A stretch of DNA of 64,000 nt from Bacteroidales bacterium (GTDB lineage: Bacteria; Bacteroidota; Bacteroidia; Bacteroidales; UBA932). Of the stretch, positions 1-4,785 are shown one piece after another. Numbering within the stretch: position 1 is the first letter of the stretch; every line of letters begins with the position of its first letter. The stretch lies in NCBI GenBank assembly GCA_017555965.1, contig JAFZFH010000071.1, positions 1-64,000 on the forward strand. The letters run 5' to 3'. The notes below the pieces were generated by a model, which was not told the DNA's origin, made no database searches, and saw only the letters and a list, made by a program, of their open reading frames with translations. Made by a program: the position numbers and the translations under genes.

Positions 1-70
1 CCGTAGCTCAGTTGGTTAGAGCACTACACTGATAATGTAGGGGTCAGCAGTTCAAGTCTGCTCGGGACTA
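1..70 (+). tRNA. tRNA-Ile (GAT), 5' end cut by window edge
   Basis: The anticodon stem CTACA/TGTAG encloses the loop CTGATAA, giving anticodon GAT for isoleucine. The 3' acceptor strand CGGGACT (63-69) needs a 5' partner of seven bases, but only its last three (CCG) are inside the window, so four bases are missing. The T arm AGCAG/CTGCT is intact and the CCA end is not encoded in full. Confidence 0.9.
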
Positions 71-90
71 CAAAGTTCTATAAGAATTTA

Positions 91-173
91 GGGAGAATAC
101 CAGAGTGGCCAAATGGGGCAGACTGTAAATCTGCTGGTTTTTACCTTCGGTGGTTCGAATCCATCTTCTCCCA
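91..173 (+). tRNA. tRNA-Tyr (GTA)
   Basis: The acceptor stem GGGAGAA/TTCTCCC closes a class II tRNA with a long variable arm. The anticodon stem GCAGA/TCTGC holds the loop CTGTAAA, so the anticodon is GTA (tyrosine). It lies 20 bases after the tRNA-Ile in the same orientation. Confidence 0.93.
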
Positions 174-186
174 CATTAATTTTTAT

Positions 187-262
187 GCGGAAGTAGCTCA
201 GTTGGTAGAGCACAACCTTGCCAAGGTTGGGGTCGCGAGTTCGAGCCTCGTCTTCCGCTCCA
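187..262 (+). tRNA. tRNA-Gly (GCC)
   Basis: The acceptor stem is GCGGAAG/CTTCCGC, and the anticodon loop TTGCCAA gives GCC (glycine). An encoded CCA follows the discriminator base at 259. Confidence 0.94.
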
Positions 263-265
263 AAT

Positions 266-337
266 GCTCGGTTCGTATAACGGTTAGTACTCAAGATTCT
301 CAATCTTGCAATAGGGGTTCGATTCCCCTACCGAGTA
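266..337 (+). tRNA. tRNA-Glu (CTC)
   Basis: The acceptor stem is GCTCGGT/ACCGAGT with one G-T pair. The anticodon stem CAAGA/TCTTG encloses TTCTCAA, giving CTC (glutamate). It starts four bases after the glycine tRNA, so the cluster is probably one transcript. CTC is the rarer glutamate isoacceptor; a TTC species should exist elsewhere. Confidence 0.9.
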
Positions 338-341
338 CTCC

Positions 342-865: not shown

Positions 866-1186
866 GGCGCAAATTTAAAGAATTTCCAGTAAGCAGCCTG
901 AGACTATCTGGCACTGTAGGTGAACCACGTATTCATCATCTGAGTCGGTGGTTCGACAGCATTATTTCAGTAAAAATGTCCAGATTTAGAGATCGAACCA
1001 CCAACTCAACCAATGAACCGGTGGTTCGCATACACCGTCATAGCCAGCAAACACAGATGCCCGATCAAGTCGGGCATGACGAAGGAAGACAGGGCATAAG
1101 ATCACCGTCATAGCCGGCTTGACCGGCTATCTGAAAATGTAACAGAATCTTAACACGTAACTTATTGCAGATTACGAAGGAAGCAG
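866..1186. other. Non-coding spacer with operator-like and REP-like repeats
   Basis: No supportable gene is seen. The stretch holds three copies of a GGTGGTTCG motif in alternating orientation (947-956, 993-1002 inverted, 1020-1028), then two palindromes of REP type (1055-1080 and 1109-1133), then the -33 part of the promoter that leads into the 97-bp inverted repeat. Confidence 0.7.
1055..1133. repeat. Two REP-like palindromes
   Basis: The first has arms GCCCGA/TCGGGC around TCAAG; the second has arms TAGCCGG/CCGGCTA around CTTGA. Both belong to the same general class as the array at 5693-5940. Confidence 0.7.
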
Positions 1187-1194
1187 TACCTTTG
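1165..1194 (+). promoter_or_regulatory. Bacteroidota promoter reading into left repeat arm
   Basis: TTG at 1165-1167, exactly 19 bases, then TACCTTTG at 1187-1194. This matches the Bacteroidota -33/-7 pattern (TTG-N19-TAnnTTTG). The -7 box is the first part of the inverted repeat and the -33 lies outside it. The predicted start is near 1200, reading rightwards, antisense to the PAS operon. Confidence 0.65.
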
Positions 1195-1283
1195 CACCCG
1201 GTTATTAGTTTTAGTGTTATTAATTATGTGGTTATGATGAGGTGCCTCACGTGAGTGACGCAGCTCATTTTCTTTTTATATAC
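1187..1283. repeat. Left arm of 97-bp perfect inverted repeat
   Basis: This stretch is the exact reverse complement of 3864-3960. The outermost bases are a -7 promoter box and the inner part is a hairpin with a T-rich tail. No target-site duplication is visible at the outer edges. Confidence 0.93.
1200..1276 (+). ncRNA. Candidate small RNA, left copy
   Basis: From a canonical promoter the transcript would be about 75 nt. Its 3' part (1239-1266) folds as GAG.UGC.UCAC capped by the GNRA loop GUGA, with two 1x1 mismatches, followed by a U-rich tail (TTTTCTTTTT). That is a plausible intrinsic terminator. No convincing reading frame exists inside; the longest is a 6-codon string. An identical inverted copy sits at 3871-3947. 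This is inference from sequence layout; I do not recognise the family. Confidence 0.5.
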
Positions 1284-1289
1284 CCTCAA

Positions 1290-1628
1290 CTATCTTATAT
1301 AGTGAGGCATTTCCTCTGGGATGACCATTGATATTTCGACAAGTCCTGCCACAACACCATCTTCCTTCCACGCAGTCTGATAGATCATCTTCTTCTGTCC
1401 ATTCTTCTGGATTGTGTAGCAGTTGGTCCCGCCAGTTTCAAGGAGTCTGGCGATGATGGCTCTCGAGTTTTCATTATGACATGGAATCAGACTCTTGCCG
1501 ATGAGGTCACCATGCTTTGAGAATGTCTCCTTTGCCTTATCGTTCATGTAAAGGATGACGCCTTCCTTATCGCAGACTGTTACTGCGCAGTTCATTTCCT
1601 TTGCCCAATCAGGTATCATATATCTCAA
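1290..1628 (-). CDS. PAS domain protein
   Basis: The 112-residue single-domain protein has a PAS core: the strand VTVCDKEGVILYMND, the helix KAKETF, then GKSLIPCHNENS and the closing strands with GVVAGLVEI. It has no signal peptide or output domain, so it is a stand-alone cytoplasmic PAS module that may bind a ligand or cofactor. It is the last gene of the minus-strand run MsrA - rhodanese - NifX-like - PAS and ends six bases before the left repeat arm. The redox company suggests a redox-related signal, which is inference. Confidence 0.75.
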   Translation of the reverse strand: MRYMIPDWAKEMNCAVTVCDKEGVILYMNDKAKETFSKHGDLIGKSLIPCHNENSRAIIARLLETGGTNCYTIQKNGQKKMIYQTAWKEDGVVAGLVEISMVIPEEMPHYIR

Positions 1629-1636
1629 TCTCTATT

Positions 1637-1984
1637 TTAATGACAGTCGTGGTGATCGCATACTTCACCATTGTCCTTGATGTTTCCTGCAAGGTATGCA
1701 GCCACAAGATCTTCAACATCACCGCTGCAGCCTCTGATCACCTCAATCCTCTGAGCCTCAAGCACATTCTTCGCTCCCTGTCCCATATTTCCGGCAAGCA
1801 TGACCACAACTCCCATCTGACGAAGTACGGGAGCGATTCCGCTCTTGCATCCGCATCCTTCAGGGGAAGCCATCCTGCTGACATTCGTCACTTTTCCGTC
1901 AATGACATCGAATATCGAATAGTATGCGCAATGACCGAAATGATCATCCACGCGTCCGTCTCGTGTAGGTACCGCTATCTTCAT
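1637..1984 (-). CDS. NifX/NifB-type Fe-Mo cofactor-binding family protein
   Basis: From the ATG at 1984 the 115-residue protein begins MKIAVPTRDGRVDDHFGHC, the typical start of the dinitrogenase iron-molybdenum cofactor-binding fold, and ends in a histidine/cysteine tail (CDHHDCH). The pattern EGCGCKSGIAPVL adds further cysteines. A longer frame up to 2047 would run into the preceding rhodanese gene, so the inner start is preferred; it leaves 10 bases after the rhodanese stop. In organisms without nitrogenase such proteins are general metal-sulfur cluster binders; no nif genes are visible here. Confidence 0.8.
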   Translation of the reverse strand: MKIAVPTRDGRVDDHFGHCAYYSIFDVIDGKVTNVSRMASPEGCGCKSGIAPVLRQMGVVVMLAGNMGQGAKNVLEAQRIEVIRGCSGDVEDLVAAYLAGNIKDNGEVCDHHDCH

Positions 1985-1994
1985 AATGATCTTA

Positions 1995-2396
1995 TTATTC
2001 TTTATTACTGTCTTTTGCAACTTCCTTTTCTGCTGCCACCCAGCCACGGAACCCTGTACCGAGTTCTACAACTTCATAACCTTTTTCAGCGAGGATACGG
2101 GCTGCATTCTTGCTGCGATTACCGCTACGGCAGTAAAGAGCTACGGGCTTGTCCTTCGGAAGAGTCTCTGTAGCGATCTTCGTGTAACTATCCTCAAGTA
2201 CATCGATATTGTAGTGAGTGCCAGGAATATATCCTTCCGCATGCTCTGCAGCAGTACGGACATCCAGAACTGTTACTGTAGTATCAGATATGAACTTTGC
2301 GAATTCAGAGGCATCTACTGTCTTGAACTTATCGGTCTGTCCGAAGAGGCCAAAAAATGAAAATCCCATAATAAGAGTGAGAAATAAACGTTTCAT
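1995..2396 (-). CDS. Secreted rhodanese-like sulfurtransferase
   Basis: From the ATG at 2396 the 133-residue product has a signal peptide (MKRLFLTLIMGFSFFGLFGQ) and one rhodanese domain: VTVLDVRTAAEHAEGYIPG, then the active-site loop CRSGNRS with the catalytic cysteine, then a GYEVVELGTGFRGW end. It would act in the periplasm on thiosulfate or persulfide donors. Starting at 2465 would overlap msrA and place residues before the signal, so 2396 is chosen. It belongs to the same operon as msrA. Confidence 0.88.
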   Translation of the reverse strand: MKRLFLTLIMGFSFFGLFGQTDKFKTVDASEFAKFISDTTVTVLDVRTAAEHAEGYIPGTHYNIDVLEDSYTKIATETLPKDKPVALYCRSGNRSKNAARILAEKGYEVVELGTGFRGWVAAEKEVAKDSNKE

Positions 2397-2401
2397 ATAC
2401 T

Positions 2402-2926
2402 TTATTCGTCTTTGTTTTGTGAATATGTCCTGGCAAAGCGCATGAGCTCGGGCGAAAGGTGGCAATAGCCGTCAGGGTTCTTTACAAGGTAGTCCTGGTG
2501 GTATTCTTCTGCCGGATAGAAGCATTCAAGCAGAGACTTTTCGACAGCCAGAGGCGTCTGATATTGGCTCTGCACTTCCGCATAAACCTGCTCGACGACT
2601 GTGCGGTCTTCATCCTTTTCCCAGTATATTCCGGTCCTGTACCTCGTTCCGCAGTCCCCGCCCTGGCGGTTCAGAAGCAACGGATCGATGGATTTGAAGA
2701 AGAGGCGGCAGATGGTCTGAAGGGATATGAGTTCGCTGTCGTATTCGACCTTCACGCATTCGACATGTCCGGTCGTGTCGGTATAGACCTGCTGGTATGT
2801 GGGATCGGGCAGCCTGCCGTTCGCATAACCGACCTGCGTTGAGACCACGCCTTTGAAAAGGCTCATATAATGTTGTGTACCCCAGAAGCAGCCGCCTGCC
2901 AGATATATGATGTCTGTATGTTTCAT
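2402..2926 (-). CDS. msrA: Peptide methionine-S-sulfoxide reductase MsrA
   Basis: The 174-residue cytoplasmic enzyme has the catalytic motif GGCFWG with Cys13 near the N-terminus and the conserved C-terminal segments YHQDYL and NPDGYC. It reduces the S-epimer of methionine sulfoxide in proteins using thioredoxin. Its length fits the MsrA-only form without a fused MsrB. It is first in the minus-strand operon, followed five bases later by the rhodanese gene, which fits a sulfur/redox repair unit. Confidence 0.95.
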   Translation of the reverse strand: MKHTDIIYLAGGCFWGTQHYMSLFKGVVSTQVGYANGRLPDPTYQQVYTDTTGHVECVKVEYDSELISLQTICRLFFKSIDPLLLNRQGGDCGTRYRTGIYWEKDEDRTVVEQVYAEVQSQYQTPLAVEKSLLECFYPAEEYHQDYLVKNPDGYCHLSPELMRFARTYSQNKDE

Positions 2927-2931
2927 ATGGA

Positions 2932-2960
2932 CAAATTTAAGAATTAAAAGATTTATTCAA
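2932..2960 (-). promoter_or_regulatory. Promoter of msrA operon
   Basis: On the minus strand TTG (2960-2958), 18 bases, TAAATTTG (2939-2932), with the msrA ATG six bases further. The very short leader is like that of several other genes in the window. Confidence 0.5.
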
Positions 2961-3021
2961 TAAATTTGGGTTCGGAATAGTTTGTGGTATATTGAAAACA
3001 AACATTACTTCGTCCGTAACC

Positions 3022-3882
3022 ATGATGATAAACGACAAAACAGCTCTAGTATTGGAAGGTGGAGGACTTCGCGGCGTATTTACCTGCGGGGTGCTCGACT
3101 GTTTCATGGACCATAATATCCGCTTCCCTTTCGTAATCGGCGTCAGCGCAGGAGCATGCAACGGTCTTTCATATATGTCCGGCCAGAGAGGCAGGGCAAA
3201 AAGCAGCAACATCGATCTGATGGACAAGTACCATTATGTCGGAATCAGATATCTGCTGACTCAGGGCTGCATCATGGACTTCAAGCTTCTGTTCGAAGAT
3301 TTCCCGGAGAAGATCATCCCGTATGACTATGAGGCTTATTATTCAAACCCGACCAGGTTTGTGATGGTAGCTACCAACTGCCTCACAGGAAAGGCGGAGT
3401 ATTTTGAGGAAAAGTCGTCTTCGGAAAGGATCATGAGCATCGTCAGAGCATCGAGCAGTCTGCCGTATGTGACGAAGATCACTTATGTGGACGGGGTTCC
3501 GATGTTGGACGGCGGTATCGTGGATTCGATTCCGATTCAATATGCGTTGGATCAGGGATATAAAGACATGGTGGTCATCCTTACCCGAAACAAGGGATAC
3601 AGGAAGAAGGAGGGAAAGATGCGAGTCGCCAAGGCATTCTATCGTAAATATCCTGCTCTGCAGAAGGCGCTTCAGGAACGTAATGCCGTGTATAACCGTA
3701 CGATGGATCTGGTCGAAAGTCTGGAAAATAAAGGTAAGATCATTGTGATCCGTCCGATGAAGCCGGTGGTGGTCGGCCGAATGGAGAAGGACACCTCGAA
3801 ACTCACTGCCCTGTATGAAGAAGGATACGCGATTGCGGAGAATATGATCGCAGGACGAAGGGAGTATATAAAAAGAAAATGA
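3022..3882 (+). CDS. Patatin-like phospholipase
   Basis: From the ATG at 3022 the ~286-residue protein has the patatin set: oxyanion hole GGGLRG, nucleophile elbow GVSAG and the catalytic DGG (MLDGGIVDSIP), so it is likely a lipid acyl hydrolase of the RssA/YjjU type. No signal peptide is seen. An upstream TTG at 2992 would add residues that do not belong to the family. The last codons and the stop (3880-3882) lie inside the right arm of the inverted repeat, so the repeat has shaped the C-terminus (YIKRK). Confidence 0.88.
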   Translation: MMINDKTALVLEGGGLRGVFTCGVLDCFMDHNIRFPFVIGVSAGACNGLSYMSGQRGRAKSSNIDLMDKYHYVGIRYLLTQGCIMDFKLLFEDFPEKIIPYDYEAYYSNPTRFVMVATNCLTGKAEYFEEKSSSERIMSIVRASSSLPYVTKITYVDGVPMLDGGIVDSIPIQYALDQGYKDMVVILTRNKGYRKKEGKMRVAKAFYRKYPALQKALQERNAVYNRTMDLVESLENKGKIIVIRPMKPVVVGRMEKDTSKLTALYEEGYAIAENMIAGRREYIKRK

Positions 3883-3960
3883 GCTGCGTCACTCACGTGA
3901 GGCACCTCATCATAACCACATAATTAATAACACTAAAACTAATAACCGGGTGCAAAGGTA
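3864..3960. repeat. Right arm of 97-bp perfect inverted repeat
   Basis: Exact reverse complement of 1187-1283. It covers the last six codons and the stop of the patatin gene. The distance between arms is about 2.58 kb. Confidence 0.93.
3871..3947 (-). ncRNA. Candidate small RNA, right copy
   Basis: Mirror image of the candidate RNA at 1200-1276, read leftwards, with the same GUGA-capped hairpin at 3908-3881. Its 3' end is antisense to the patatin stop codon region, so it could affect the end of that mRNA. Confidence 0.5.
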
Positions 3961-3982
3961 AGGAGATTTCCAAGACCCGCAA
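3953..3982 (-). promoter_or_regulatory. Promoter reading into right repeat arm
   Basis: On the minus strand TTG (3982-3980), exactly 19 bases, TACCTTTG (3960-3953). Outside the repeat the two arms share TTAACAC, seven variable bases, then ATTGC at matching positions, so the -33 region is conserved although the surrounding bases differ. Confidence 0.65.
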
Positions 3983-3993
3983 TAGCTTGAGTG

Positions 3994-4785
3994 TTAAATA
4001 AATGTTACATCGTCATTAACACGCATGAACTCGAGCGAATGGTGATTGAAATACCTCTTGTTGTCGACATTGCAGACATGTCCGGCATTCGGTACGACGA
4101 TCAGTGACACATAGTCTCCTGCGTTTCTTACGGTCTGTCTGACCTGCGGGAGGAAGAGTCTGTCATCCTCTCCCATCATGTAAAGAGTCGGGATTGCGAT
4201 GTACTCTTCGAAGAGTTCCTTAATATAGGTACTTACTCCGTCTCCCAATTTGAGCCAGTTATGGAAACTGTCAAATGAGACTTTCTTTGCGTTGTTCAGG
4301 AAGAGTCTCTTGGAGTTTTCGTATTTACCCTGTGGTATGATGCATTTTGCGATTACGCTCTTGATAAGAGAGTACGGGATAAGTCGCTTGAATGTTGTCG
4401 CAAGGGTAAGGAGAGTGCGGACCTTTGTGTTGAGCTGGGTCACAGCTCCTGCGAGCACCATGCTTGATACCTGCTGAGGGTTATGCTTTGCGATGATTCG
4501 TACGACTATGGAGCCGAGTGAAAGGCCGATGAAATGGCCTTTTTTAATATTCAGATGGTTCACGACTTCCATGACCTGCTCGGCCGCTCTCGAGAAGTTG
4601 AATCCTTTTCCGAAGGATTCATTCGCAGAGCCACCGTGGCCGGCAAGATCGACCAGCAGAAGATTGAAATGAAGTGCATAGTCAGCGACCTGACGGAACC
4701 ATACTTCGATGCTTCCGCCCGCTCCATGTATCATTACAATCCAGCTGTCGAACTTGTTATTTTCAAAAGTCTTATAGTGTAACAT
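3994..4785 (-). CDS. Alpha/beta hydrolase
   Basis: From the ATG at 4785 the 263-residue cytoplasmic protein shows the alpha/beta hydrolase pattern: MIHGAGGSIEVW (oxyanion loop), GHFIGLSLGS (nucleophile elbow GLSLG), an Asp in MGEDDRLF and a His in PNAGHVCN. The substrate is unknown; small esters or lactones are common in the family. The frame continues to 4863, but the -7 box at 4816-4809 lies inside that extension, so 4785 is the better start. Confidence 0.85.
   Translation of the reverse strand: MLHYKTFENNKFDSWIVMIHGAGGSIEVWFRQVADYALHFNLLLVDLAGHGGSANESFGKGFNFSRAAEQVMEVVNHLNIKKGHFIGLSLGSIVVRIIAKHNPQQVSSMVLAGAVTQLNTKVRTLLTLATTFKRLIPYSLIKSVIAKCIIPQGKYENSKRLFLNNAKKVSFDSFHNWLKLGDGVSTYIKELFEEYIAIPTLYMMGEDDRLFLPQVRQTVRNAGDYVSLIVVPNAGHVCNVDNKRYFNHHSLEFMRVNDDVTFI

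What the first reader, a model, noticed from the sequence alone, without database searches (positions are those of the whole stretch)
1165..3982. Two identical promoter-plus-short-RNA units form a 97-bp perfect inverted repeat
The arms 1187-1283 and 3864-3960 are exact reverse complements. Each begins with TACCTTTG and has a TTG exactly 19 bases upstream, outside the repeat, flanked by the shared pattern TTAACAC-N7-ATTGC. Each ends in a hairpin with two mismatches and a GUGA loop followed by a U-rich tail. Promoter, ~75-nt body and terminator are all present, so each arm looks like a small RNA gene. Both fire inward, antisense to the ends of the two operons between them. I know of no described element with this layout.
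Basis: partly seen in the sequence, partly recalled or inferred. Interest (0 to 1): 0.75.

Follow-up and report, generated by a model that had tools for sequence, protein, structure and literature searches.

The report
Two copies of a gut-bacterium small RNA
The two mirror-image stretches look like two copies of a small RNA gene found across one genus of gut bacteria, with a 35-letter core that hardly ever changes and that viruses of these bacteria appear to use as a landing site.

Summary
In detail: 1187-1283(+) and 3864-3960(-) are exact reverse complements, with promoter-like boxes and a terminator-like hairpin. The inverted layout is not the point. Each arm is one member of a dispersed small-RNA gene family. 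The genome holds four copies; 85 of 101 sampled genomes of its genus match (Cryptobacteroides, inferred titles), and 0 of 92 genomes of 24 other genera of the family do. Members share a nearly invariant, C-free 35-nt core and a terminator hairpin that varies in sequence but keeps its pairing. Upstream sits a TTG-N19-TANNTTTG promoter, a sigma-54-like promoter, or a tRNA-Cys gene; most copies also carry a 5' hairpin, covarying where tested, which the window's short copies lack. No Rfam family matches. Unexpectedly, of 14 viral contigs carrying at least 18 nt of the core, 13 have a tyrosine integrase gene within 1.4 kb, so the gene also looks like a phage attachment site. Targets are unknown: a translation-start signal in this genome did not replicate elsewhere.

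The parts
1187..1283 (+). arm 1: 97-bp unit holding the -7 box, sRNA body and terminator
1139..1155 (-). tandem TGTTA(A/C)-N5-TGTTA(A/C) operator-like element upstream of arm 1
   Evidence: two such sites in 963,271 sampled bases of this genome, one before each arm; element of this kind in 15 of 16 other short-class copies, 2 in shuffles
1165..1167 (+). -33 TTG, 19 nt before the -7 box
   Evidence: TTG at gap 19 in 118 of 131 family promoters
1187..1194 (+). -7 box TACCTTTG (Bacteroidota type TANNTTTG; type recalled)
1200..1234 (+). 35-nt nearly invariant core, C-free; predicted RNA start at or near 1200
1236..1269 (+). terminator hairpin, GUGA loop, T-rich tail after it
3864..3960 (-). arm 2: the second, identical 97-bp unit
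3992..4008 (+). tandem TGTTAA-N5-TGTTAC operator-like element upstream of arm 2
3980..3982 (-). -33 TTG, 19 nt before the -7 box
3953..3960 (-). -7 box TACCTTTG
3913..3947 (-). 35-nt nearly invariant core
3878..3911 (-). terminator hairpin
1290..1628 (-). ORF between the arms, PAS-like (Pfam scores under the curated cut-off)
2992..3882 (+). patatin-like phospholipase ORF; last 19 nt overlap arm 2

Best explanation
Each arm is a gene for a roughly 77-nt trans-acting small RNA. SHOWN BY COMPARISON: it belongs to a genus-wide family with one to four matches per genome, a nearly invariant 35-nt core, a covarying intrinsic terminator, and interchangeable upstream parts (short promoter with a tandem TTAACA-type operator; promoter plus covarying 5' hairpin; sigma-54-like promoter; tRNA-Cys gene). 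One RNA output is thus wired to several inputs. The window pair are two short-class copies in opposite orientation, probably a duplication kept identical by recent copying or gene conversion (inferred). INFERRED: the core works as a base-pairing seed or a protein-binding site that regulates mRNAs in trans, most likely at G-poor translation starts, as the FopS and GibS RNAs of Bacteroides do. INFERRED FROM PHAGE SEQUENCE: the same core serves as chromosomal attachment site of several temperate phages.
For: Spread: 4 copies in own genome; 85 of 101 genus genomes, 44 of 47 of those at least 90% complete and at most 5% contaminated; 0 of 92 genomes of 24 other genera of the family. Core: of 41 instances found by similarity, 38 are exact and 3 have one mismatch; of 124 found by a pattern that fixed 24 of 35 positions, 117 and 7 (L034, with one base missing, fell outside the rule); the positions the pattern left free, 1-5, 22-24 and 33-35, are 97-100% constant over all 165. 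Promoter: TANNTTTG in 131 of 151 unique instances against 13 on the reverse complement; TTG at exactly 19 nt in 118 of 131; distance to the core 13 nt in 16 and 47-57 nt in 101. Terminator: 19 cells changed on both sides against 6.2 in shuffles, 0 of 500 (28 of 151 instances, one geometry); T-run in 130 of 143 against 22 of 143 shuffled, mean MFE -16.8 against -7.8. 5' hairpin: 33 double-change cells against 11.3, 0 of 500 (41 of the 105 long-class instances, one geometry). Varied neighbours, few ORF overlaps. Attachment site: 13 of 14 viral contigs have an integrase ORF 35-1355 nt from the core, 10 of them within 250 nt (families); L358 and L360 share 62-68 nt at 98.5-100% with host sRNA genes, from core nt 12 to the terminator.
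Against: No transcript data. No target established: the 9-nt match signal at translation starts of likely secreted proteins in this genome (18 of 241 against 4.1 and 5.7 expected) was absent in G097 (1 of 89), in G719/G750 stretches (0 of 79), in loci of other species (1 of 133) and in small own contigs (0 of 79 regions). No rRNA pairing beyond chance (the 16S searched was partial). 13 of 143 copies lack a T-run by my rule. In one search the number of pairs with a double change (4) is not exceptional by itself (131 of 500 shuffles). No integrated prophage at an sRNA copy was caught: five distantly related host integrases lie elsewhere, and no record of the 'phages' collection matches the core.
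Confidence: 0.72

Rival explanations
1. The core is mainly a protein-binding or titrating element (RNA chaperone or regulator sponge), and base-pairing is not its job.
For: 35 nt kept almost letter for letter whatever lies upstream or downstream; no reproducible complementarity to translation starts or to rRNA.
Against: The kind of RRM_1 protein that binds FopS in Bacteroides is missing in 60 of 61 genus genomes (24 of the 25 better ones), so no candidate protein is known; long single-stranded seeds are documented in Bacteroides (PMC7366714, passages read).
Confidence: 0.25
2. The 97-bp inverted repeat is a recombination device: the 2.6-kb segment inverts, or the arms are ends of a mobile element.
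For: Exact inverted repeats could recombine; convergent pairs also occur in L225 (G052) and L086, there around a MATE-like gene (name by eye) and an integrase gene.
Against: The ORFs between the window arms are PAS-like, Nitro_FeMo-Co, rhodanese, methionine sulfoxide reductase and patatin, none a recombinase; two of the four own copies are single; the tested flanking genes are not shared as direct neighbours with other sRNA loci; the unit carries covarying RNA hairpins and spaced promoter boxes.
Confidence: 0.06
3. The sequence is a cis-acting leader or attenuator of the next gene.
For: 49 of 128 instances with a downstream ORF have it on the same strand.
Against: The other 79 do not; a T-run terminator follows in 130 of 143; neighbours differ.
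Confidence: 0.04
4. The conserved core is only a phage attachment site, not a functional RNA.
For: Integrase-adjacent copies in 13 of 14 viral contigs.
Against: Promoter spacing and two covarying hairpins exist across host loci, of which only three showed a related integrase nearby; phage integration does not by itself keep a host sequence constant across a genus (reasoning).
Confidence: 0.04

Closest known systems
FopS sRNA family of Bacteroides thetaiotaomicron (with GibS)
   Same: Paralogous sRNAs, canonical Bacteroidota promoters, long single-stranded conserved stretch, Rho-independent terminator, a copy reported in a phage (PMC11697453, abstract and passages seen).
   Different: No Rfam match, though that paper says FopS was deposited; no RRM_1 gene in 60 of 61 genus genomes; 1-4 matches per genome, not the 12-15 copies stated there; added 5' hairpin, sigma-54-like and tRNA-linked versions; no common pairing with SusC starts.
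Second RbpB-linked sRNA family (BTnc020 and five others) next to transposases/invertases
   Same: Multicopy sRNA family with a link to mobile genes (PMC11697453, passage seen).
   Different: Those each lie beside transposases or invertases; here a related integrase was seen beside 3 of 190 host loci scanned (loci partly redundant, many with 1.5-kb flanks; transposases not scanned). Sequences not compared.
RNA genes used as phage attachment sites (tRNA, tmRNA, some sRNA genes; recalled as a general kind)
   Same: Contigs L358, L360 and L361 carry the 3' part of the gene up to its terminator beside an integrase gene.
   Different: Here the overlap includes half or all of a genus-wide RNA core, and contigs whose integrases differ in length and domain hits carry it; integration itself was not observed.

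Membership tests
[quoted passage not shown]
   (copies: 4 in own genome, one match in most genus genomes)
FopS sRNA family | Sequence relation to FopS (Rfam model, R1' seed) | tested here: inconclusive
   No match at gathering or at E up to 5 except BTnc049 at E 2.9; nothing convincing outside the genus in order-wide samples. I could not confirm that the Rfam copy holds FopS and had no FopS sequence.
FopS sRNA family | Partner RRM-1 protein RbpB | tested here: not met
   PF00076 absent in own genome and in 60 of 61 genus genomes, many incomplete; control rings in Bacteroides ihuae
FopS sRNA family | Represses susC-like mRNAs at the start codon | tested here: inconclusive
   28 loci with SusC-family hits, 11 over the cut-off; of their longest ORFs' starts only the window's own SusC (L206) pairs strongly, -19.8
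Intrinsically terminated small RNA gene | Promoter at fixed spacing, hairpin plus T-run, compensatory changes | tested here: met
Intrinsically terminated small RNA gene | A detected transcript | not testable with these tools
   no RNA-seq at hand
Phage attachment site in an RNA gene | Phage carries a stretch identical to one end of the host gene, beside its integrase gene | tested here: met
Phage attachment site in an RNA gene | Prophage found integrated at the gene with both junctions | tested here: inconclusive
   5 of 101 genus genomes hold a related integrase (28-40% identity), none near a core; L086, L135 and L225 have an integrase right after an sRNA copy
Invertible DNA segment | Inverted repeats with a recombinase gene beside or between them | tested here: not met
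   ORFs between the arms and the ones tested beside them; a distant recombinase was not looked for

The most novel reading that the evidence does not exclude
One nearly invariant RNA word serves as a genus-wide regulatory hub: the same 35-nt core is fired from several promoter types and from a tRNA-Cys transcript, acts in trans without an RbpB-type protein, and is also the landing site of several different temperate phages. Some phages bring their own promoter-like box and terminator (L194, L364), others only half of the core (L354, L355), so lysogeny would add, swap or truncate the host's regulator and tie phage integration to host gene control.
Probability: 0.27. Interest if true: 0.82.

Novelty: new variant of a known kind. 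Interest (0 to 1): 0.66.

Why it matters
The genus, by record titles Cryptobacteroides from rumen and gut, has many species, and a search of the held library for it with 'small RNA' gave one unrelated paper. A 35-nt stretch held constant across a genus marks a strong and unexplained constraint. The family gives a sharp marker for transcripts in rumen data, a test of how multicopy sRNAs work without RbpB, and a case where a regulatory RNA gene seems to double as a phage docking site.

Tried and rejected
Rfam: scan at gathering and permissive scans gave no family for the unit; BTnc049 at E 2.9 taken as chance. Class sample of 295 genomes with a sequence-only model: own genome plus four weak hits. 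Order sample of 295 with the 97-base query: own genome, G402 of the same genus and 19 weak hits. I read 23 of these loci and saw no promoter plus terminator, but the script printed the best ungapped match, which in several loci was not the hit itself. The structured model found own genome, G402 and two weak full-length hits in other genera (L348, L349); left open, probably chance given 295 genomes.

Targets: no overall excess of duplexes in 775 translation-start regions of the window and sRNA-bearing loci. In 628 own regions, 21 below -20 kcal/mol against 10.1 in 60 shuffles, none reaching it, yet no excess at -14 or -16 and no shift of the mean; 10-nt matches 17 against 5.2, 0 of 200, and none in excess in other species. 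The own signal sits mostly in likely secreted proteins (my crude signal-peptide rule; 12 of 387 others against 6.0 and 7.0) and is seen in both halves of the own set. Own contigs were chosen because they hold SusC-type hits, so the sample is not neutral. Replication failed (see evidence against). A lead only. rRNA complementarity and a common SusC target set aside.

Flawed steps replaced: a first integrase scan gave many false weak hits because one query was translated across the sRNA itself; only L086, L135, L225 and the viral contigs were kept. A first terminator count (97 of 143, shuffles 46 of 429) folded past the T-run and was replaced.

Rows dropped: loci repeating own copies, the window arms included, were left out of the 165 instances; L034 (one base missing) failed the mismatch rule; 165 rows became 151 after merging identical flanks. 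L358 and L359 are two stretches of one contig and count once. L365, inside an ORF with no integrase recognised by eye (no family search there), is the one miss of 14. Integrases of L360 and L362 score just under the Pfam cut-offs, L355 and L364 pass on the SAM-like domain only.
Full report
WHAT IS THERE. The two arms exist as described. Promoter boxes, spacing and hairpin were read directly. The one correction concerns antisense overlap: 19 nt at the patatin ORF end on the right, none on the left.

A DISPERSED FAMILY. A search of the window's own genome with the 97-bp unit found four copies: the two arms, one at 96% on C148 and one at 84% on C43. In the genus sample 85 of 101 genomes matched, 44 of the 47 that are at least 90% complete and at most 5% contaminated; matches per genome run from one to four, some of them short or at contig ends. 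In a family sample all 7 genomes of the same genus matched and 0 of 92 from 24 other genera. Order and class samples gave nothing convincing outside the genus.

THE CORE. In 29 relatives fetched by similarity (L007-L035), 27 have the 35-nt core exactly, one has one mismatch and one lacks a base. Lower in the list, 17 matches are 100% over exactly the core. Of 165 instances (window arms and L034 not counted, three viral ones included) 155 are exact and 10 have one mismatch. 124 of these came from pattern searches that fixed 24 core positions, so there only positions 1-5, 22-24 and 33-35 are a fair test; over all 165 these are 97-100% constant. The 41 others are 38 exact and 3 with one mismatch. 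The core contains no C.

THE REST OF THE GENE. In 151 unique instances TANNTTTG lies within 150 nt upstream in 131, against 13 on the reverse complement; a TTG sits exactly 19 nt before it in 118 of 131; its distance to the core is 13 nt in 16 (the class of the window arms) and 47-57 nt in 101. By architecture: short promoter 16, long promoter 105, tRNA directly upstream 11, sigma-54-like TGGCAC-N4-6-TTG 9 (motif recalled), other 4, cut by a contig end 6. ARAGORN calls tRNA-Cys in 10 of the 11; the eleventh, L083, is cut by its contig end. The long class has a 5' hairpin whose outer stem covaries: 93.1% of cells paired, 33 double changes against 11.3 in shuffles, 0 of 500 (41 of the 105, one geometry). 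The terminator stem covaries too: 87.7% paired, 19 double changes against 6.2, 0 of 500 (28 instances of one geometry; the number of pairs with a double change, 4, is not exceptional, 131 of 500). A T-run follows in 130 of 143 copies (22 of 143 shuffled), and all 130 hairpins are more stable than the mean of their own shuffles.

AN OPERATOR IN THE WINDOW'S CLASS. A tandem repeat of TGTTAA or TTAACA with an 11-bp period lies upstream in 15 of 16 short-class copies (at most two mismatches; 2 in shuffled sequence), against 17 of 104 in the long class (5 shuffled); it sits about 61, 78 or 138 nt before the core, and several of the 16 are close relatives of each other. A degenerate form occurs twice in 963,271 sampled bases of this genome, once before each arm, and once in the G719/G750 stretches. 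This suits a response-regulator site (inference; resemblance to Pho-type boxes is recalled).

CONTEXT. Neighbours and orientations vary; 7 of 150 instances overlap an ORF of at least 80 aa. Six proteins encoded around and between the arms were compared with the ORFs of all sRNA loci held: only a NifX-like ORF recurs, about 3.5 kb from the sRNA in L151 and L229 (the rhodanese ORF was not compared, and many loci are short). Between the arms lie PAS-like, Nitro_FeMo-Co, rhodanese, methionine sulfoxide reductase and patatin ORFs. So the paired layout looks local, while the single gene is the conserved thing. The arms are identical over 97 bp but only 32 of 60 bases match upstream, which suits recent copying or gene conversion (inference).

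PHAGES. Three viral contigs carry the whole core; half-core and middle patterns added more, 14 contigs in all with at least 18 nt of it. In 13 a tyrosine integrase ORF lies 35-1355 nt away, in 10 within 250 nt (families, with the weak scores told under Tried and rejected). Six carry the 3' part of the core (L356, L357, L358, L360, L361, L362); five of them go on into a terminator like the hosts', L362 ends with the contig. L358 and L360 share 62-68 nt with host sRNA genes at 98.5-100% and L361 66 nt at 98.5%, beginning in the core and ending about the T-run; L356 and L357 are more distant. That is the usual form of an attachment site in an RNA gene (general knowledge). L194 and L364 have a promoter-like box, the core (one base inserted in L364, by eye) and their own terminator; L354 and L355 have only the 5' half. 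Against it: no integrated prophage at an sRNA was caught, five genus genomes with distantly related integrases have them elsewhere, and the 'phages' collection holds no match. Three host loci have an integrase right after an sRNA.

FUNCTION. The layout matches trans-acting sRNAs such as FopS and GibS (PMC11697453 and PMC7366714, abstracts and passages seen). RRM_1 proteins are missing in 60 of 61 genus genomes, 24 of the 25 better ones, so the partner, if any, differs. Complementarity of the core to translation starts of likely secreted proteins is high in this genome (18 of 241 with a 9-nt match against 4.1 and 5.7 expected) but absent in two other genome samples and in other loci, so targets remain open. 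rRNA is not a target by this test.

NOVELTY. No Rfam family. Pieces of the core's letters occur in no paper of the held library, and the one paper holding both Cryptobacteroides and small RNA is a calf-feeding study (listing only). Two searches on attachment sites in sRNA genes gave listings only, none opened. I call it a new variant of a known kind: a multicopy sRNA family with an unusually constant core, mixed promoter wiring and probable use as a phage attachment site.

Noticed in passing
L011, L031, L066, L071, L072, L083, L094, L097, L114, L120, L150: In 11 unique instances the core follows a tRNA gene directly, tRNA-Cys by ARAGORN in 10, so the sRNA may be cut from the tRNA transcript.
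   Followed up: partly
L016, L017, L065, L086, L101, L103, L130, L172, L192: Nine instances have a sigma-54-like TGGCAC-N4-6-TTG promoter in place of the usual box.
   Followed up: partly
L070, L106, L191, L124, L148: The hairpin after the core is not followed by a T-run; in the first three a shared AAGGATGGAGC-like sequence follows. Unexplained.
   Followed up: no
L225 (G052) and L086: Convergent sRNA pairs flank a MATE-like transporter gene (by eye) and a tyrosine integrase gene in two genomes.
   Followed up: partly
window 1107 and 5868: Short palindromic GTCAT..CCGG..GACCGG-type intergenic repeats, possibly REP-like.
   Followed up: no
window 1-338: tRNA cluster at the contig start: Tyr, Gly, Glu and one cut off at the edge.
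   Followed up: no
G015:C17 end (L226): Two partial matches face each other 15 bp apart near a contig end; probably an assembly artefact.
   Followed up: no
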